Shown in pieces: positions 3,820 through 56,609 of a DNA stretch of 64,000 nt (the first letter of the stretch is position 1; each line of letters begins with the position of its first letter). The stretch is from Haloarchaeobius amylolyticus (GTDB lineage: Archaea > Halobacteriota > Halobacteria > Halobacteriales > Natrialbaceae). The translations under genes and the position numbers were made by a program. The notes below the pieces were generated by a model that had not been told where the DNA came from, searched no databases, and was given only the letters and a program-made list of their open reading frames with translations. The DNA lies in contig NZ_JANHDH010000002.1 of the NCBI RefSeq assembly GCF_026616195.1, positions 434,001 through 498,000 on the forward strand, given 5' to 3'.

Positions 3820-3893
3820 CCGCCCTTAGCTCAGACTGGTAGAGCAGTCGACTGTAGATCGACTTGTCCCCCGTTCAAATCGGGGAGGGCGGA
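3820..3893 (+). tRNA. tRNA-Tyr (GTA)
   Basis: Cloverleaf fits fully: acceptor arm CCGCCCT (3820-3826) pairs with AGGGCGG (3886-3892), discriminator A at 3893; the D arm contains AGCTC...GAGC; the anticodon stem GTCGA/TCGAC encloses loop CTGTAGA with anticodon GTA at 3854-3856; the T arm is CCCCG-TTCAAAT-CGGGG. No intron is apparent. CCA is not encoded. A short AT-rich stretch at about 3775-3788 may hold its promoter. Confidence 0.95.
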
Positions 3894-25197: not shown

Positions 25198-25779
25198 ATG
25201 ACTTCCGCCAGGCCAACCCTGCTCGGCGGGCAGACCGGCGAGGGGGGCGTCACGGACCTCGACTCGGACGAGGTGTTCCAGTTACTGACCAACAGACGGC
25301 GTCGCGACACCATCCGCGCACTCGCCGGCGAGGACGAGGACGACGGCGGGACCGACCTCGGGACGCTGGCCGACGAGGTGGCAGCGGCCGAGACGGGCGC
25401 GCCGATAGACGAGGTGTCGTCGGACGAGCGACAGCGCGTGTACATCTCGCTGTACCAGTCGCACCTGCCGGCGCTCGACGACGCGGACGTGGTCCGGTAC
25501 GACGAGGAGACCAGTCGCGTCGAGCCCGGCCCGAACCTCGACCCGCTGGTCGCGTACCTCGACCCGGAGGCACAGTCCGGCGATTCCTCGAGCTGGCTGG
25601 GCTATCACCTCCTGGCGGGGTGTGTCGGGCTGGCGTTCTGGACGGTCCACTTCCTGAACGTGCTCCGCATCTCGCCGTTGCTCTTGCACACCGGGTCCAT
25701 CCTGTCGAGTCTGACCGTCGCGCTGGGCCACCTCAGGAGTCGCGCCCAGGAACTGCTCACTCCCTCGTCCTCTGGTTAG
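25198..25779 (+). CDS. DUF7344-type winged-helix protein with C-terminal membrane helices
   Basis: 193 aa from ATG 25198. The N-terminal half (DSDEVFQLLTNRRRRDTIRALAG...TLADEVAAAETG...SDERQRVYISLYQSHLPALDDADVVRYDEE) is the haloarchaeal DUF7344 winged-helix-like domain. The C-terminus has two hydrophobic segments (YHLLAGCVGLAFWTVHFLNVL; ISPLLLHTGSILSSLTVALGHL), so it is membrane-bound with the DNA-binding-like domain inside. It is followed 65 bp later by a winged-helix gene, and the same two-gene order recurs at 54985-52857. Confidence 0.82.
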   Translation: MTSARPTLLGGQTGEGGVTDLDSDEVFQLLTNRRRRDTIRALAGEDEDDGGTDLGTLADEVAAAETGAPIDEVSSDERQRVYISLYQSHLPALDDADVVRYDEETSRVEPGPNLDPLVAYLDPEAQSGDSSSWLGYHLLAGCVGLAFWTVHFLNVLRISPLLLHTGSILSSLTVALGHLRSRAQELLTPSSSG

Positions 25780-25844
25780 CCAACTGATAAACCTAAGCCA
25801 CTTGGGTCTACGTACTTTATACTCGGCCAGTAGAGTTATTACAG

Positions 25845-26342
25845 ATGAGTTCCCCCTCCCCCACCAACGGCGAAACGACAGTCGACCACGTCATCCTGTG
25901 GCTGCACGCAGCCCTCGTCGGTGCCCGGGACCGCGCGACGAGTGCGGTCGCCCGGCTCCGCGACGAGACCCGGCGACGGTTCCAGCGGATGCGACCGTCG
26001 GCCGTCGACGACGAACCAGCGACCGAACCGGTAGCCGAGCAGCCGGACGCCCCACCCAGCGCCGACGTGGTCGAAGCCGAGGCGACGATCCCGGCGTGTC
26101 CGAGCGACCAGATACTCGCCGCGGTCGAGCGCGAAGGGGGACGGATGTGGCAGAACGACATCGTCGAGAGCGTGAACTGTTCCTCCTCGACGGTGAGCCG
26201 TCACCTCTGCGCGCTCGAATCCGAGGGCGCGATCCAGCGGGTCACGGTCGGACGCGAGAAGATCGTCGCCCTCCCGGACTACGAGTTCGACGCGACGATG
26301 ACCATGCACGACGACAAGGACCCGCACCAGCAGGCGGCGTAG
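25845..26342 (+). CDS. winged-helix transcription regulator
   Basis: 165 aa. The first ~80 residues are charged and partly disordered, with an N-terminal helical region (HVILWLHAALVGARDRATSAVARL). The winged helix is at about 86-150: CPSDQILAAVEREGGRMWQNDIVESVNCSSSTVSRHLCALESEGAIQRVTVGREKIVALPDYE. The same domain, residue by residue recognisable, forms the C-terminus of the protein at 52857-54320. A TATA-like TTTATACT near 25815-25822 gives it its own leaderless promoter. Confidence 0.82.
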   Translation: MSSPSPTNGETTVDHVILWLHAALVGARDRATSAVARLRDETRRRFQRMRPSAVDDEPATEPVAEQPDAPPSADVVEAEATIPACPSDQILAAVEREGGRMWQNDIVESVNCSSSTVSRHLCALESEGAIQRVTVGREKIVALPDYEFDATMTMHDDKDPHQQAA

Positions 26343-50124: not shown

Positions 50125-51945
50125 TCACTCGACGGTGACGCTCTTGGCCAGGTTCCGCGGCTTGTCGATGGGACGACTCAGGGTCTCGGCCGCGTAGTAC
50201 GAGAGCAGCTGCAGCTGGACGTTGGCCAGCAGGCCGACCCACTCCGGCGACGACGACGGCACCTGGAGGTGCTCGTCGGCGAACTCGAGCGACGGGTGGT
50301 CGGCGGGTGCGACCGAGACGATGGGTGCGCCGCGGGTCTGGGCCTCCTTGGCGTTGTTGAGCGTCTTCCGGTCGTGGTCCTCGTCGCCGGTGAAGACGGC
50401 GAAGACGGGCGTCCGGTCGGTGACGAGCGCCAGCGGGCCGTGTTTCAGCTCGCCCGCCGCGAAGCCCTCGGCGTGCTCGTAGGTGATCTCCTTGAACTTC
50501 AGCGCGCCCTCCATGGCGACCGCGTTCGCGACGCCGCGGCCGATGAAGAAGTACGCGTTGTGGTTGCTGTAGTGCTGCGCCAGTCGCTTGGCGGCGGAGA
50601 AGTCGAGCACCTGCTCGATGTGCTCGGGGAGCTGTTGCAGCGACGCGAGGAAGTCCGCGAGGTCGTCGCGCTGTTCGCCCGTGGTCGCGTCCCCGAGGAC
50701 GCGCTGGCTCAGCAGCGCCAGCGAGACGACCTGCGAGGAGAACGTCTTGGTCGCGGCGACCCCGATCTCGGGGCCGGCGCGGATGAACAGCGACTCGTCG
50801 GCCTCGCGGGCCGCGGTCGAGCCGACGACGTTCGTCACGGTCACGACCGACGCACCCTTGTCCGCCGCCTGTCGCATGGCGCTGAGGGTGTCGGCTGTCT
50901 CGCCGCTCTGGGTCACCGCGACGACGAGCGTCTCGTCGTCGATGGTGTCCGTCTGGAGCCCGTACTCGCTGGCGCGGTAGGCGTTCGCGCTGATGCCGCC
51001 GTCCCGGAGCATCTTCGCCCCGAACATCGCGGCGTGGTACGAGGTACCGCAGGCGACGAAGTGGACGTCGCGCACGTCCTCGAACGTCTCCGGCGGGAAG
51101 TCCTCCAGCTGGACCGTCTCCGACTCGGGGTCGGCCCGGCCCTGGATGGTGTTCGACAGGGCCGTCGGCTGGTGGTTGATCTCCTTGAGCATGTAGTGGT
51201 CGTAGACGCCCTTGCCGGTCTCGCTGGGGTCCCAGTCGACCGTCTGGACCTCCCGGGCGACGGGGGTGCCCGAGAGGTCCGTCAGCGACAGGTCGTCCTC
51301 CTCGATGACGACGACGTCGCCGTCTTCGAGGTACATCACGTCGTCGGTGTAGTCGAGGAACGCCGGCACGTCGCTCGCGAGGTAGTGGGCGTCGTCGTCG
51401 AGCCCGACCACCAGCGGGGAGCCCTGCCGGGCCGCGAACAGCCCGTCGTGGCCGTCCATGATGGCGGCGATGGCGTAGCTCCCCTCCAGCTCGCGGACGG
51501 TCTCGCGGAACGCGACCTCGGGGTCGCCGGTCTCCTCGAGCCGTTCGTCGACGAGGTGCGGGATGACCTCGGTGTCGGTGTCGCTGGTGAACTCGTGGCC
51601 CTTCGCCTCGAGCTCGTCGCGGAGTTCGCTGTAGTTCTCGATGATGCCGTTGTGGACGACGGCGACGTTCTCGTCCGACGGCGTATGCGGGTGTGCGTTC
51701 TCGTCGGTCGGCGGTCCATGCGTACTCCAGCGGGTATGGCCGATGCCGACGTCGGCCTGTTTCCCGAGGGGGACCTCCTCTTTCAGCTCACCGACGCGCC
51801 CGGAGCGCTTGTGGACCTCGACGCCGGAGCCGTTCTGGATGGCGACGCCGGCGGAGTCGTAGCCGCGGTACTCGAGGTTCTCGAGGCCGGTGACGAGCCG
51901 GTCGACGGTCCGCCGCGGCCCGACGCACGCGATGATGCCACACAT
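50125..51945 (-). CDS. glmS: glutamine-fructose-6-phosphate aminotransferase GlmS
   Basis: 606 aa, full length. N-terminal class II glutamine amidotransferase starting MCGIIACVG with catalytic Cys2, LENLEYRGYDSAGVAI and GHTRWSTHGPPTDENAHPH; two SIS isomerase domains with FVACGTSYHAAM, VTQSGETADTLSAM and YFFIGRGVANAVAMEGALKFKEITYEHAEGFAAGELKHGPLAL; C-terminal PRNLAKSVTVE. Makes GlcN-6-P, the entry to UDP-GlcNAc. No glmS ribozyme-like structure was noticed in its leader. The stop of a 44-codon ORF overlaps its start (TGATG), so it is probably the second cistron. Confidence 0.95.
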   Translation of the reverse strand: MCGIIACVGPRRTVDRLVTGLENLEYRGYDSAGVAIQNGSGVEVHKRSGRVGELKEEVPLGKQADVGIGHTRWSTHGPPTDENAHPHTPSDENVAVVHNGIIENYSELRDELEAKGHEFTSDTDTEVIPHLVDERLEETGDPEVAFRETVRELEGSYAIAAIMDGHDGLFAARQGSPLVVGLDDDAHYLASDVPAFLDYTDDVMYLEDGDVVVIEEDDLSLTDLSGTPVAREVQTVDWDPSETGKGVYDHYMLKEINHQPTALSNTIQGRADPESETVQLEDFPPETFEDVRDVHFVACGTSYHAAMFGAKMLRDGGISANAYRASEYGLQTDTIDDETLVVAVTQSGETADTLSAMRQAADKGASVVTVTNVVGSTAAREADESLFIRAGPEIGVAATKTFSSQVVSLALLSQRVLGDATTGEQRDDLADFLASLQQLPEHIEQVLDFSAAKRLAQHYSNHNAYFFIGRGVANAVAMEGALKFKEITYEHAEGFAAGELKHGPLALVTDRTPVFAVFTGDEDHDRKTLNNAKEAQTRGAPIVSVAPADHPSLEFADEHLQVPSSSPEWVGLLANVQLQLLSYYAAETLSRPIDKPRNLAKSVTVE

Positions 51946-52079
51946 CAGGGTCTCACCCCCGTCGGGTCGTCGACGAGTACGGGCTGGTACACCCGACGGC
52001 TCCAGAGCGGTTCAGATCGGTTCGTCTCGGACTCGCCAGCGGTGCGAGTGCTCGTTTCGGTGTCTGTTTGTTCGGTCAT
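51945..52079 (-). CDS. 44-aa small ORF immediately upstream of glmS
   Basis: Encodes MTEQTDTETSTRTAGESET, then a Trp-Arg-Arg-Val-Tyr segment and LVDDPTGVRP. Its TGA overlaps the glmS ATG (TGATG), the common arrangement for coupled genes. The acidic, Thr-rich start is typical of genuine haloarchaeal proteins, more so than the other short upstream ORFs of this island. No family recognised. It could be a small regulator of GlmS or a leader peptide. Confidence 0.45.
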   Translation of the reverse strand: MTEQTDTETSTRTAGESETNRSEPLWSRRVYQPVLVDDPTGVRP

Positions 52080-52176
52080 GGTTCGGTGTATCTCCCGCCA
52101 GAGCCACGACGGGTCGCGGGGACGATTCAGGCGTACACGACCTCGGGGGTTTACTATAGACCGGTTAAGGGAGTTG

Positions 52177-52191
52177 TTAGTGCGGCTGTAA
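52177..52191 (-). promoter_or_regulatory. TTA-N9-TAA dyad upstream of the glmS unit
   Basis: TTA (52177-52179), nine bases, TAA (52189-52191). A third half-site TTA at 52165-52167 lies exactly another 12 bp away, giving three phased half-sites. A TATA-like TCTATAGTAAAC (minus strand) at about 52152-52160 follows and would start the smORF-glmS transcript near 52130. Confidence 0.45.
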
Positions 52192-52203
52192 GCTGAAACC
52201 GGT

Positions 52204-52856
52204 AATCACCGCGTCAGACACTGGTCAAACCGCCGAACTGTCCACGGTCGTTCATTCGGTTCAGGTCCGAAGCCCGCCGTCGGTTCCCCGGTCGACCGGC
52301 CCACCCCGACGCCGTCGGTGTTCGCCTGCTCACATGTCACATGGCTCTGCGGCGGGACAGCCGCGGCCGCCGACCGGCTCGCGGGCGCTCCACAACTGTC
52401 TGGGAGAACGAATCTGGCCCGAGAACAGGGGACGGAGGCGTGGTCGAGGGTGCGAGGTCGGGCACGACGGGTGGCGGCCGAATGGCGGGGCCGCGGCGGG
52501 AGTGACGGTGCAGGCAGGGGACGGCGGTGCGGGGGGTGGTACGGAGCCCGCGGGGGGTGTGCCGGGAGAAGGAACGACGCCGTACCGAGCCTGCAGAGCC
52601 GCACCGGGAGAAGGAGCGGTGCGGCCCCTCGACAAGAGCTGCTGTCGAAGGACGGCCAGTCGATGCTGTGGCGCAGAACGGGGCGATGCTGTCTGGCGGC
52701 TGGGCGCGCCAGCCGGTGGACGATCGGGATGCTGCGGCTGGTGGACGGCTGGAATCGACGCTGGAAGAACGGGCGCTATCGAAGGGAGGAATCGCGAGAC
52801 GCGTCTCGAGGGCAGCGAAGCGAAGACGACGCCAGGTCGCTGGTCGCGCCGGGGCG
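52204..52856. other. 653-bp gap with strong strand asymmetry, no convincing gene
   Basis: The plus strand is markedly G-rich over C and purine-rich from about 52390 to 52850, unlike either coding or ordinary intergenic DNA here. It contains several perfect short hairpins: GCCGCACCG/CGGTGCGGC (52598-52606 with 52617-52625), GGCTGG/CCAGCC (near 52700) and a 14-bp palindrome CGAGACGCGTCTCG (52795-52808). CCGGGAGAAGGA occurs twice (52562-52573, 52604-52615). Open frames across it give Arg/Gly-rich, non-protein-like translations. It may be a structured RNA, a 3' untranslated region of the minus-strand gene at 52857, or eroded sequence. Confidence 0.4.
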
Positions 52857-54320
52857 TCAGAAGAACGGCTTCGAGTTCTCGGGCTCCTCGTCCGGGAGGG
52901 TGATGAGGTTCTCGCGGCCGACGCTGATCTTCCGGACCTCGCCCTCGCTCTCCATCTTCGAGAGGAGGCGACTCACCTTCGACTTCGACCAGTCCGTCTG
53001 CTCGATGATCTCCTTCTGCTGGAGCCGCCCGCCGTTCTCGCGGAGGATCTGGCGGACGCGCTCCTCGTCGGTCAACACGGGGGTACTGGGCGGTTCCGGG
53101 CCGACCTGCTCGGACTCCTGCGGGGGTGCCATGCGGTCCTCGACCTGTCCGGTCTCCACGCCCGTCTCGGGCTGGTCGTCCTCGTCGCCGAGGTACTGGG
53201 ACGCGACCGCGCGGGCCGACGCGGAGTCGACCCGGCCGGTGTAGACCAGCCGGCCGGCGACGAGGATCGCCACGAGGAGCACGACGTAGAGCAGCGGCGA
53301 GACGACGCTGGTCGGGTCCGTCCCGAGATTCGCCTCCGTCTCGTCGCTCAGGAGGTCGCCGTCGGTATCGGCGACGGTCGGGTCGGTGCCGAGGGCCTTC
53401 TCGCGCGCGTCGTCGAGCCCGTCACCGTCGGTGTCGGCGACGGTCGGATCGCTCTTCCACTTGAACTCCTGGAGGTCGGTGAGGCCGTCCCCGTCGGTAT
53501 CTGCCTTCTTGGGGTTCGTCCCGAGGTCGAGTTCCGCGGGGTCCGTGAGACCGTCGCCGTCGGTGTCGGCGTCGGTCGCGTTCAGGCCGTTCTCGAGCTC
53601 GAACCCGTCGGTGAGGTTGTCACCGTCGGTATCGGGGTTGGTGGGGTCGGTGCCGACCGATATCTCCCGGGCGTCGCGGGCCTTGTCGCCGTCGGTGTCG
53701 GGGTCGGTCGGGTCGGTCCCGTACTCGTTCACCTCCGGGCCGTCCTCGAGGGTGTCGCCGTCGGTGTCCACGGCGGTGAGGTTCGTGCCGTGTTTCAACT
53801 CGGCGGTGTTGGAGAGGCTGTCGCCGTCGACGTCACCGTCTTTCGTGATGACGAACACCTGGACCGAGGTGTCGTCGAAGACCGTGGAGCCGTTGCCGAC
53901 CGTGACCGTCACCTCCTGCTTGCCCGTCCCGTTGAACGGCCACGACTTGGACGAGAGGGTCACGGTCGAGGTGTTCCCGGAGATCGTCGTCTGGGCACAC
54001 GGGCCGGTGGTGGTACTCCCTCCGGTGCTCGAGGTGTTCGACTGCGACCCGGTCTTCCGGAGGCAGACGGACAGCGGCTCGTCGGAGACGTTCCCGCCCG
54101 GGGACGTGAGCTGGACCGTGACCGTCTGGTTGGCCTGCTGCCAGAGGAACACCCGGTCACCGCTCCCGTTGTAGTCGACGACCGCGGGACCGGAGATGCC
54201 GACGTTCTCGATGCTCGTCTGGTTCGCACGCGAGGGTGCGGCCTGCGCGGGCGAGACGGCGGCGGTCCCGACCAGCACGAGGCTGACCAGCAGCCAACAG
54301 CGTATCGTTCGTCCGTTCAT
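52857..54320 (-). CDS. membrane-spanning regulator: extracellular calcium-repeat domain, one TM helix, cytoplasmic winged helix
   Basis: 487 aa. Signal peptide (CWLLVSLVLVGTAAVSPAQA), a beta-sandwich-like region (30-150), then eight thrombospondin-type-3/EF-hand-like repeats of the form D-x-D-G-D-x-L-x-D spaced about 20-24 residues (about 155-335), expected to bind Ca2+. A single transmembrane helix (SPLLYVVLLVAILVAGRLVY, about 338-360) is followed by an acidic linker and a C-terminal winged helix (about 415-478: RVRQILRENGGRLQQKEIIEQTDWSKSKVSRLLSKMESEGEVRKISVGRENLITLP). This looks like a one-protein surface sensor and transcription regulator. The winged helix is closely related to that encoded at 25845. 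Likely operon with the DUF7344 gene 62 bp upstream. Confidence 0.82.
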   Translation of the reverse strand: MNGRTIRCWLLVSLVLVGTAAVSPAQAAPSRANQTSIENVGISGPAVVDYNGSGDRVFLWQQANQTVTVQLTSPGGNVSDEPLSVCLRKTGSQSNTSSTGGSTTTGPCAQTTISGNTSTVTLSSKSWPFNGTGKQEVTVTVGNGSTVFDDTSVQVFVITKDGDVDGDSLSNTAELKHGTNLTAVDTDGDTLEDGPEVNEYGTDPTDPDTDGDKARDAREISVGTDPTNPDTDGDNLTDGFELENGLNATDADTDGDGLTDPAELDLGTNPKKADTDGDGLTDLQEFKWKSDPTVADTDGDGLDDAREKALGTDPTVADTDGDLLSDETEANLGTDPTSVVSPLLYVVLLVAILVAGRLVYTGRVDSASARAVASQYLGDEDDQPETGVETGQVEDRMAPPQESEQVGPEPPSTPVLTDEERVRQILRENGGRLQQKEIIEQTDWSKSKVSRLLSKMESEGEVRKISVGRENLITLPDEEPENSKPFF

Positions 54321-54382
54321 CTATCGAATCGTCGCGTAGTGTATCCGGCCATTGTCGTATCCGTCTCGCCGCGGTCGACCAG

Positions 54383-54985
54383 TCAGTCGCTCCCCGAGGT
54401 CTGTTCGCGCGAGGAGAGTGCGTCCGCGCCGGAGAGGGAGCCAAAGAGCGTCAGCATCCCGATGGCGAGCAACTCGGCCGACAGCCCGACGACGCCGAGT
54501 GCGGTTCCGACGAACAGCATCGAGGCCACGCCGGTCGCGGCCAGGTAGTAGAACGTCCAGTCGTGATCGCGGCCGGTCGTCGACTCGTCGGTCGCCTCGT
54601 CGCCGGCCGGCTCGTCGAGGTACGGCATGAGTTCCTCGGCGAGGGGCTGGCGCTCGACGATGCCACGGTCCTGGTTGTAGTCGATGACGCCCTCCTCGTC
54701 CAGTGCGGGCAGGTGCGACTGGTAGAGCGCGATGTAGACGCGCTGGCGCTCCTTGGAGGTGAGTCGCTGGACCGTGGTGTCGTGCTCCCAGGCGGCGACC
54801 TGCTCTGCGATGTCGCGCATGCGGACGGGGTCGTCGGTATCCTGCAGGTAACGCAGGACGTCGCGGCGACGACGGTTCTGGAGGAGGTGGAACATGTCGT
54901 CCTTGGTGAACTCGTCCGTGCCGTCGGGGAGGAGCTCGGGCGGAACCTCGCTTTCGGACTCGGTGTCTTCTACTGCGGCGCTCAT
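54383..54985 (-). CDS. DUF7344-type winged-helix protein with membrane helices
   Basis: 200 aa. N-terminal DUF7344 domain: DDMFHLLQNRRRRDVLRYLQD...MRDIAEQVAAWEHDTTVQRLTSKERQRVYIALYQSHLPALDEEGVIDYNQDRGIVERQPL, aligning along its length with the protein at 25198. Two C-terminal hydrophobic segments (WTFYYLAATGVASMLFVGTALGVVGLSAELLAIGMLTLFG). TATA-like TTTATTATC (minus strand, about 55012-55021) and the ATG at 54985 suggest leaderless transcription. The region above the TATA carries a phased repeat array (55057-55086). First gene of the unit with the membrane winged-helix protein. Confidence 0.82.
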   Translation of the reverse strand: MSAAVEDTESESEVPPELLPDGTDEFTKDDMFHLLQNRRRRDVLRYLQDTDDPVRMRDIAEQVAAWEHDTTVQRLTSKERQRVYIALYQSHLPALDEEGVIDYNQDRGIVERQPLAEELMPYLDEPAGDEATDESTTGRDHDWTFYYLAATGVASMLFVGTALGVVGLSAELLAIGMLTLFGSLSGADALSSREQTSGSD

Positions 54986-55056
54986 TGTCTCATCCGATAC
55001 ATTCGATACAGCGATAATAAACCCGGCAACTCGTCCCGACAGTTGGATTATGTATA

Positions 55057-55114
55057 GACTGTTTCGGACTGTTGCGGACTGTCGAAACAGAGCGGGAAAG
55101 TCTGTTTCAGACGG
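55057..55114. promoter_or_regulatory. phased GACTGT repeats and palindromes above the DUF7344 promoter
   Basis: GACTGTTTCG, GACTGTTGCG, GACTGTCGAA stand head to tail at 55057, 55067 and 55077, one helical turn apart. GAAACAG (55084-55090) is mirrored by CTGTTTC (55102-55108), and GTCTG-TTT-CAGAC lies at 55100-55112. Further CTGTTT-like copies occur to about 55128. Position just upstream of TATA (about 55012-55021) suggests cooperative binding of a regulator, perhaps the operon's own winged-helix proteins. Confidence 0.6.
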
Positions 55115-55171
55115 TTTAACGGCTGTTTGTGGGTGGTGTCACGAGTTGCCAAACTTGTTTAATCAGGTGGA

Positions 55172-55200
55172 CTTAATCGGGGGTGCAGTTCCAGATTAAG
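55172..55200 (-). terminator. inverted repeat after the UDP-sugar dehydrogenase gene
   Basis: CTTAATC (55172-55178) pairs with GATTAAG (55194-55200) around a 15-nt loop, starting 21 bp beyond the dehydrogenase stop. Another TTTAATC copy lies at 55159-55165. It may end the dehydrogenase transcript; an operator is also possible. Confidence 0.3.
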
Positions 55201-55221
55201 ACCGGGACAAAGCGAGTTAGT

Positions 55222-56538
55222 CTACAATTTCCGATACGTAACGTCGACCCCGTCTTCTTTGGCACGTGCTAACGCGCCGGGGACGTCGACGACGAACCCG
55301 TCGTCCGCCAGTCGCTCGGCCATCGTCGTCACGTCGATCTCGGCGAACTCGTCGTGGCCGGTGCCGACGAGCACCCCGTCGTAGTCCTCGAAGGAGAGGG
55401 AGTCGGTGACCGGGACGTCGAAGTTCTCGCGGACCGCGTCGGCGTCGGCGTGCGGGTCGTAGACGACCATCTCGACGCCGTACTCCTCGAGGTCGTCGAG
55501 GATGGCGTCGACCTCCGAGGTCCGGATGTCGCCGACGTTCGGCTTGTAGGCGACCCCGAGCACGAGGACGCGGCTCTCGCGGGGGACGTTGCCCGTATCG
55601 TTCATCGCCCGGCGGACGAGTTCGGCCACGTGCGAGGGGACGTACTCGTTGATCTCGCGTGCCTTCATGATGAGCTCCGGCGCGAAGCCCTCCTGTTTCG
55701 ACTGGTAGGAGAACAGGTGTGGGTCCACCGGGATGCAGTGCCCGCCGACGAGGCCGGGGCGGTACTCGTCGTGGAAGTTCCACTTCGTCCCCGCGGCCTC
55801 CAGCACCGCCTCGGTGTCGAGGTCGAGGTGGTCGCAGGCGATGGCGAGTTCGTTCACCAGCGCGATGTTGATGTCGCGCTGGACGTTCTCGATGGCCTTC
55901 GCGGCCTCGGCGGTCTGGATGTCGGGCGCACGGTAGACGCCGGCGTCGACGATGGACTCGTAGACGGCGGCGACCTGGTCGCAGACGTCCTCGGTCCGGC
56001 CACTGACGATCTTCGTCACGTCCCGCAGGCCGCGCTTGCTGTCGCCCGGCGAGACGCGCTCGGGGGAGTAGCCGACCTCGAACTCCTCGCCGACGGTGAA
56101 CCCGGACGTGGACTCGAGCGCGGGGACGAGCACCTCCTCGGTCGCGCCGGGGTAGACCGTGGACTCGAGGACGACCGTCGTCCCCGCGCTCATGTGTTCG
56201 CCGACCGTCTCGCCGGCGCTCTCGATGTACGAGAGGTCCGGGGTCCCGACCTCGTCGACCGGTGTCGGGACGGTGAGGACGACCACGTCCGCCCGCGCGA
56301 TGGCGTCGGGGTCGTCGGTGAACGTCGCGTCGCTGTCGGCGACGCGGCCGTCGCCGAGTTCGCCCGTCGGGTCGGTCCCGTTCGAGAGGGTGGCGACCTT
56401 CTCTGACTGGACGTCGTAGCCGACGACGGGGTGGCCCTCCTCGGCGAATGCCAGGGTGAGCGGGAGGCCGACGTAGCCCAGGCCGACGATGCAGACCGAC
56501 TCCGTCTCGGCGTCTGGCGGCGCGAGCGTCTGGCTCAT
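55222..56538 (-). CDS. nucleotide-sugar dehydrogenase (UDP-ManNAc/UDP-glucose 6-dehydrogenase family)
   Basis: 438 aa from ATG 56538. NAD-binding VCIVGLGYVGLPLTLAFAEEGHPVVGYDV, TVPTPVDEVGTPDLSYI, ESTVYPGATEEVLVPALE and GYSPERVSPGDSKRGLRDVTKIVSG; the catalytic Cys is in PGLVGGHCIPVDPHLF near residue 265; the C-terminal UDP-binding domain begins at VLVLGVAYKPNVGDIRTSE. The S-P-E-R-V-x-P-G pattern is that of the UDP-ManNAc dehydrogenase (WecC-like) branch. It makes a uronic-acid nucleotide sugar for the glycan. The start is chosen at ATG because upstream in-frame residues are not conserved-looking. Confidence 0.9.
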   Translation of the reverse strand: MSQTLAPPDAETESVCIVGLGYVGLPLTLAFAEEGHPVVGYDVQSEKVATLSNGTDPTGELGDGRVADSDATFTDDPDAIARADVVVLTVPTPVDEVGTPDLSYIESAGETVGEHMSAGTTVVLESTVYPGATEEVLVPALESTSGFTVGEEFEVGYSPERVSPGDSKRGLRDVTKIVSGRTEDVCDQVAAVYESIVDAGVYRAPDIQTAEAAKAIENVQRDINIALVNELAIACDHLDLDTEAVLEAAGTKWNFHDEYRPGLVGGHCIPVDPHLFSYQSKQEGFAPELIMKAREINEYVPSHVAELVRRAMNDTGNVPRESRVLVLGVAYKPNVGDIRTSEVDAILDDLEEYGVEMVVYDPHADADAVRENFDVPVTDSLSFEDYDGVLVGTGHDEFAEIDVTTMAERLADDGFVVDVPGALARAKEDGVDVTYRKL

Positions 56539-56609
56539 GGACAGACACCTCCGTGCCTGTGCGTCGCGTTCGTCGCTGCGGGTGGCGTTCGATTGGCTGA
56601 GACTCGCAT
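56535..56609 (-). CDS. possible leader ORF upstream of the dehydrogenase
   Basis: 24 codons (MRVSANRTPPAATNATHRHG...), TGA overlapping the dehydrogenase ATG (ATGA). A TATA-like TCTATAACG (minus strand, about 56641-56649) would start transcription near 56617, only a few bases ahead of this ATG. Composition is poor for a protein; mention rests on position and on similar cases at glmS and 49862. Confidence 0.18.
   Translation of the reverse strand: MRVSANRTPPAATNATHRHGGVCP

What the first reader, a model, noticed from the sequence alone, without database searches (positions are those of the whole stretch)
55057..55130. Helically phased GACTGT repeats upstream of the membrane-regulator operon
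Three GACTGT repeats with exactly 10-bp period, then two overlapping inverted repeats of CTGTTT/AAACAG, lie directly above the TATA element of the DUF7344/winged-helix operon. Phasing at one turn implies several protein units on one face of the DNA, fitting autoregulation.
Basis: partly seen in the sequence, partly recalled or inferred. Interest (0 to 1): 0.5.

Follow-up and report, generated by a model that had tools for sequence, protein, structure and literature searches.

The report
Helix-phased promoter repeats of surface genes
The repeats are real and belong to a promoter signal of salt-loving archaea, kept on one face of the DNA relative to the TATA box in many species, that most likely lets a membrane-anchored regulator switch on its own operon and other cell-surface genes.

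Summary
The three GACTGT repeats at 55057, 55067 and 55077 are present, exactly 10 bp apart, and beyond chance. On the strand of the operon below them they are units of GNAACRGTC; the window holds seven. In 42 non-redundant DUF7344 promoters the unit recurs in one orientation, at 10-bp spacing and in fixed helical phase to the TATA box: 39 strong units (shuffle mean 4.9), 35 in phase. A consensus from the window alone gives 21 of 23 in phase in the other 40 promoters. A pattern search of 199 genomes found 26 sites, 4 in the reversed control; 25 of 26 in phase. They head genes for lipoproteins, acidic surface proteins, a UbiA prenyltransferase and DUF7344/DUF7343 operons; a model search added HtrA-type proteases. 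Twelve of 63 sites have a DUF7343 winged-helix gene 1-2 kb downstream, 0.1 expected. My reading: an upstream activator array read by the membrane-anchored DUF7343 protein, controlling an envelope regulon. Binding and activation are inferred, not shown.

The parts
55057..55065 (-). unit GAAACAGTC (coding strand), 44 bp above TATA; kept in G002
55067..55075 (-). unit GCAACAGTC, 54 bp above TATA; kept in G002 as ACAACAGTC
55077..55085 (-). unit TCGACAGTC, 64 bp above TATA; not kept in G002
55038..55046 (-). weaker unit CCAACTGTC, 25 bp above TATA; AACTGT kept in G002
55100..55108 (-). unit GAAACAGAC, 87 bp above TATA
55110..55118 (-). weaker unit TAAACCGTC, 97 bp above TATA
55121..55129 (-). weaker unit CAAACAGCC, 108 bp above TATA (edge of the phase window, 8 modulo 10)
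55015..55021 (-). TATA-like box TTTATTA, 36 bp above the ATG; the short distance suggests a leaderless transcript (inference)
54383..54985 (-). DUF7344 gene: winged helix (28-122) and two predicted membrane helices
52857..54320 (-). TSP3/DUF7343 gene: signal helix, outer beta-sandwich and TSP3 repeats, one membrane helix (342-360), inner winged helix (418-474); candidate reader of the array

Best explanation
The repeats are part of a haloarchaeal upstream activating array. Each unit, GNAACRGTC on the coding strand, binds one winged-helix domain; units stand one helical turn apart and in a fixed rotational phase to the TATA box, so that two or more protein units line up on the face of the DNA from which they can touch and recruit TFB/TBP. 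Shown by sequence: unit, orientation, period, phase to TATA, conservation, and presence above several classes of surface genes. DUF7344, a second membrane-bound winged-helix protein, would be a partner or modulator where present.
For: Unit and period: 39 strong units in 42 non-redundant promoters, shuffle mean 4.9, largest 11; lag-10 pairs 8 against 0.007; 56 control TATA-like boxes in the same DNA have 1 strong unit. One orientation: reverse strand 5 strong matches. Phase: 35 of 39 at 4-7 modulo 10; window-only consensus on the other 40 promoters 21 of 23; free-gap pattern in 199 genomes 25 of 26, or 10 of 11 gene groups. C, G and T positions recur one turn away. Reader: 12 of 63 sites have a DUF7343 domain 975-1979 bp downstream on the same strand, 0.10 expected, including lipoprotein-DUF7343 operons without DUF7344; 30 other DUF7343 loci hold sites in only one locus; recognition-helix residue R in 31 of 31 linked and 0 of 29 unlinked domains; 26 unlinked domains form one clade. 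Activation: sites lie upstream of TATA, where GvpE, ArnR and CsmR sites lie (passages).
Against: No binding or expression data. The 12 linked sites are about four independent groups. Six of the 31 'linked' loci have no clear array (L048, L074, L075, L077, L078, L298). Rows left out of the residue count have R without an array: L002 and three second domains (L054, L058, L066). f17 arrays stand above surface genes far from any DUF7343 gene. Most f1 (own family) genomes lack clear sites. Shared descent could explain the residue match. The phase window was read off the first promoter set.
Confidence: 0.5

Rival explanations
1. The array is read by DUF7344, the first gene of the operon, in simple autoregulation.
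For: DUF7344 is a well-predicted winged helix with membrane helices, is the first gene under the window array, and its most conserved stretch is the winged helix. The array was followed through DUF7344 promoters.
Against: Arrays head lipoprotein-DUF7343 operons that have no DUF7344 gene, while most DUF7344 paralogs have no array: 16 of 111 loci without downstream DUF7343 reach p<=0.05, 15 of 20 with it.
Confidence: 0.15
2. A third, unlinked regulator reads the arrays; the DUF7343 operons are only some of its targets.
For: Several targets, such as the acidic surface proteins of f17 and the DUF4382 lipoprotein of the own genome, are far from DUF7343 genes.
Against: Does not explain the excess of DUF7343 genes below arrays or the recognition-helix match. 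A regulon is expected to have distant targets under the favoured reading too.
Confidence: 0.22
3. Same reader, opposite sign: the array is a repressor operator (negative autoregulation).
For: Autorepression is common in one-component regulators (established knowledge); the unit nearest TATA in some promoters (16 bp) comes close to the TFB site.
Against: Units lie upstream of TATA and keep phase out to 97 bp, which steric block would not need; GvpE, ArnR and CsmR sites in the same place are read as activating (passages).
Confidence: 0.1
4. Phased short A-runs bend the promoter DNA; no specific protein.
For: AA recurs every 10 bp.
Against: Runs are two or three A only; C, G and T positions recur as well; orientation is fixed.
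Confidence: 0.02
5. Chance repeats.
For: One-mismatch pairs of GACTGT are about as common as in the reversed control.
Against: Triple at period 10: 0.06 expected; kept in an ortholog and in distant relatives.
Confidence: 0.01

Closest known systems
GvpE-responsive UAS of haloarchaeal gas-vesicle promoters (PMC4390858, passages)
   Same: Haloarchaeal; paired short elements just upstream of BRE/TATA; distance to BRE matters; activator contacts TFB/TBP. The half-site TGAAACGG that I recall for it (paper not held) looks like one unit.
   Different: Two 8-nt elements separated by 4 nt (12-bp period) against 10 bp here; reader is a bZIP-like soluble protein; gas-vesicle genes.
ArnR boxes and ArnR/ArnR1 of Sulfolobus acidocaldarius (PMC6396743, passages)
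   Same: Membrane-bound one-component regulators of surface structures; two sites upstream of BRE/TATA, both needed for binding.
   Different: Inverted repeats TCGAC-N5-GTCGA; HTH is N-terminal, here C-terminal; archaellum and pili genes. PF24034 rings in S. acidocaldarius but I did not identify the protein.
CsmR site TATCA(N4)TGATA of Haloferax volcanii (PMC13286277, passages)
   Same: Haloarchaeal promoter element upstream of BRE and TATA, surface and shape genes.
   Different: Palindrome, Lrp/AsnC-type reader, no phased array.
Bacterial Cpx, PhoB and ToxR/CadC type systems (recalled; CadC only as an abstract start in the listing)
   Same: Works alike: winged-helix units head to tail on direct repeats about one turn apart; envelope targets such as HtrA; membrane-anchored activators.
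   Different: Bacterial promoters and polymerase; kinase and response regulator in Cpx and Pho; no kinship claimed or tested.

Membership tests
DUF7343 (PF24034) | Pfam profile match over cut-off | tested here: met
   Window protein 52860-54320: E 7.9e-28, 96.5 bits, cut-off 27.6
DUF7344 (PF24035) | Pfam profile match over cut-off | tested here: met
   Window protein 54386-54985: E 5e-31, 107.3 bits, cut-off 27.8
GvpE-type UAS | Two 8-nt elements separated by 4 nt | tested here: not met
   Units at 10-bp period; lag 10 has 18 pairs, lag 12 has 1
GvpE-type UAS | Adjacent to BRE | tested here: inconclusive
   Nearest units 16-97 bp above TATA; adjacent in some promoters only
ArnR box | Inverted repeat TCGAC-N5-GTCGA | tested here: not met
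   Direct repeats of GNAACRGTC; reverse strand not enriched
Membrane-bound one-component regulator | DNA-binding domain and membrane helix in one chain | tested here: met
   By prediction only: winged helix 418-474 and helix 342-360
Membrane-bound one-component regulator | Binds DNA and changes transcription | not testable with these tools
   Needs gel shift, ChIP-seq and deletion
OmpR/PhoB/CpxR-type box | Response-regulator reader with partner kinase | not tested
   The candidate readers show no receiver domain in Pfam; kinases were not sought

The most novel reading that the evidence does not exclude
Haloarchaea have an envelope-sensing gene system that works like bacterial Cpx or sigma-E: membrane-anchored DUF7343 regulators with outer sensor domains read TATA-phased GNAACRGTC arrays and switch on their own operon, surface lipoproteins, HtrA-type proteases, a UbiA prenyltransferase and acidic surface proteins, with specificity set by one arginine of the recognition helix.
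Probability: 0.33. Interest if true: 0.82.

Novelty: new variant of a known kind. Interest (0 to 1): 0.62.

Why it matters
Few archaeal activator sites are defined, and how archaea sense the state of their surface is largely open. This gives a sequence element with a strict geometry (10-bp period, phase to TATA), a candidate reader with a candidate specificity residue (R451 of the window protein), and a list of targets, in a group with good genetics. The words DUF7343 and DUF7344 occur in no paper of the library searched, so the families seem untested there under those names.

Tried and rejected
Chance: rejected. RNA element: the only Rfam match in the window is a tRNA at 3820. Inverted-repeat operator: no enrichment on the reverse strand. 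Hexamer pairs with one mismatch: near the reversed control, so hexamer counting was dropped for the unit model. Most single hits of AACRGTNNGNAACRGT in the own genome lie in coding or unclear places. A second own-genome pattern found nothing because its gap range was too short even for the window site. PDB sequence search with the DUF7343 domain: nothing. Fold search: DUF7344 gives weak generic winged-helix matches; the TSP3/DUF7343 model matches beta-sandwich domains in its outer part, which names no ligand. Literature: PMC13286277, PMC4390858, PMC6085418 and PMC6396743 read as passages only; all others seen in search listings only; PMC2241852 not held. Searches for membrane-bound regulators with HtrA and for envelope stress in haloarchaea listed nothing on this element by title; I did not read those papers. 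Model R1 fixes the TATA distance and was built from some of the sites, so its hits were not used as evidence of phase; its E-values are rough by the tool's own statement. In one search the locus L227 was cut short and its row is not valid.

Full report
Where it is. The window lies on C2 of a 4.6-Mb haloarchaeal genome (haloarchaeal by its relatives). The array lies between a UDP-sugar dehydrogenase gene (translated as 55225-56547, minus; start uncertain) and a two-gene operon on the minus strand: a DUF7344 gene (54383-54985) and a 487-residue protein with a signal helix, TSP3 repeats, a membrane helix and a C-terminal DUF7343 winged helix (52857-54320). Dehydrogenase, DUF7344, TSP3/DUF7343 and GlmS genes recur together in several haloarchaea, so this is a conserved surface-sugar neighbourhood.

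The observation. GACTGT at 55057, 55067 and 55077 is exact, and is the only hexamer in the window present three times at period 10 or 11; shuffles give 0.06 on average. Read on the operon's strand, however, the region is a row of units GNAACRGTC at 44, 54, 64, 87, 97 and 108 bp above the TATA-like box TTTATTA, with a weaker one at 25. One half-site points the other way.

Conservation. The ortholog in a congener (G002, protein 80% identical) keeps units at 44 and 54 and an AACTGT unit nearer TATA at the same distances; the third GACTGT and the farther units are not kept. A 19-mer taken from the window alone was scored on 131 DUF7344 upstream regions against shuffles. Of loci with DUF7343 downstream on the same strand, 15 of 20 reach p<=0.05 on the coding strand and 1 of 20 on the reverse strand; of the other 111 loci, 16 do. 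Without the window and G002 it is 13 of 18 against 16 of 111, Fisher 1e-6 (several Haloferax loci are near copies, so this is inflated). The operon loci that fail are L002, L074, L075, L077 and L078.

Period and phase. 51 of 131 loci have a TTTATTA-like box at a fitting distance from a start codon; they form 42 clusters at 70% identity; the other 80 were not used here. In the 42 the unit occurs with 7 or 8 of 8 matches 39 times (shuffle mean 4.9, largest 11). At the looser threshold the pair distance 10 has 18 pairs, the next highest (33) has 8. Distances to TATA cluster near 16, 25, 35, 45, 55, 66, 75, 86 and 97; 35 of 39 are 4 to 7 modulo 10. The consensus was chosen with these promoters in view and the phase window was read off them, and units of one promoter are not independent, so two further tests count more. 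First, a consensus from the window alone on the 40 other promoters: 23 strong units, 21 in phase. Second, a pattern of two units plus TTTAT with a free gap of 7 to 37 bases in 199 genomes: 26 hits in 24 genomes, 4 in the reversed control, 25 of 26 in the phase window; 10 of 11 when collapsed to gene groups (p 0.001), 8 of 9 without the DUF7344 groups (p 0.005). The hit out of phase is L191 (G071). Positions one turn up or down from a strong unit match the unit at 0.50-0.51, other offsets tested at 0.21-0.37, with C, G and T taking part; two turns away there is little, so pairs are the rule. Of 56 other TATA-like boxes in the same DNA one strong unit was found.

Targets. Genes below the 26 pattern hits: DUF7344 (4), a Thr/Glu-rich acidic secreted protein in f17 (4), small acidic lipoproteins in f6 (6), a UbiA prenyltransferase in f6 (3), a DUF7289/DUF7305 protein (2), a DUF4013 membrane protein (1), an unnamed 127-128-residue protein in f7 (3), a GNAT-like protein (1) and two unclear. 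A sequence-only model of 21 promoters found matches at E<=0.05 in 77 of 159 genomes, where about 8 chance matches are expected if the rough E-values hold. I looked at 37 of these matches: HtrA-type trypsin/PDZ proteases (G163, G042), more lipoproteins, UbiA and DUF7344 genes, DUF1328 small membrane proteins, a DUF4382 lipoprotein of the window's own genome (C1:2309587) with an ortholog site in G002, an AMP-binding enzyme in two congeners, and several hits without a TATA-like box or with unclear or cytoplasmic-looking genes. Surface proteins are frequent, but not all targets are of that kind, and I have no background rate for surface genes.

Which protein reads it. In f6 and f7 genomes the array heads a lipoprotein-DUF7343 operon without DUF7344. 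Of 63 sites in 24 genomes, 12 have a DUF7343 domain 975-1979 bp downstream on the same strand; 0.10 expected. They are about four independent groups. Thirty other DUF7343 loci contain sites in one locus only (L278, G060), where they head the divergent neighbour. Linked domains read WSK[AS]KVSRLLS or close to it in the recognition helix (446-458 in the window model): 31 of 31 have R where 29 unlinked have Q (25), M (3) or K (1). 'Linked' here means next to an array or in a DUF7344 operon; six of the 31 have no clear array (L048, L074, L075, L077, L078, L298). Left out of this count: L002 and three second domains, which have R but no array, and two duplicates; L042 gave no domain. In the tree 26 unlinked domains form one supported clade; the linked label needs three changes and few forks are resolved. 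Residue and array may thus share history without cause, but the simplest reading is that one DUF7343 subfamily reads the array. All 29 genomes searched have both DUF7343 and DUF7344 genes, so presence and absence cannot tell the two apart.

Mechanism. Direct units one turn apart suit head-to-tail winged-helix domains on one face of the DNA. Their place above TATA, and a phase kept from 16 to 97 bp, suit contact with TFB/TBP, that is, activation. Known archaeal sites lie in the same place: GvpE sites, ArnR boxes, CsmR sites (passages), but none of those described there has this unit, period and candidate reader. The outer beta-sandwich and TSP3 repeats and the surface targets suggest a surface signal. 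Binding, activation and signal remain to be shown.

Noticed in passing
window 25246-26300 (L002): A second DUF7344 gene followed by a 181-residue DUF7343-like winged-helix protein (recognition helix TVSRHLC), with no array above it.
   Followed up: partly
window 55025-55034 and 55141-55150: A perfect 10-bp inverted repeat, GGCAACTCGT / ACGAGTTGCC, flanks the whole array at 106 bp distance; the copy near TATA is not seen in G002.
   Followed up: partly
window 50125-56547: GlmS, TSP3/DUF7343, DUF7344 and UDP-sugar dehydrogenase genes keep company in several haloarchaeal families.
   Followed up: partly
G000 C1:2309587-2309619 (L223), G002 C1:698691-698722 (L246): A two-unit array with TATA heads a DUF4382 lipoprotein in both congeners: a second candidate target in the window's own genome.
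   Followed up: partly
L222, L113 (G100, G014): Two- to three-unit arrays of the same consensus, without a TATA-like box at the usual place, stand above genes of the MTD-P-x-VERELESHDAF type (DUF5813 by Pfam for L222).
   Followed up: no
L214, L226 (G114, G123): Three-unit arrays without a TATA-like box above related 99-residue membrane-like proteins.
   Followed up: no
L228, L229, L230, L245: Two-unit sites above related Gln-rich proteins that share the stretch FEDHLTNE, in several f1 genera.
   Followed up: no
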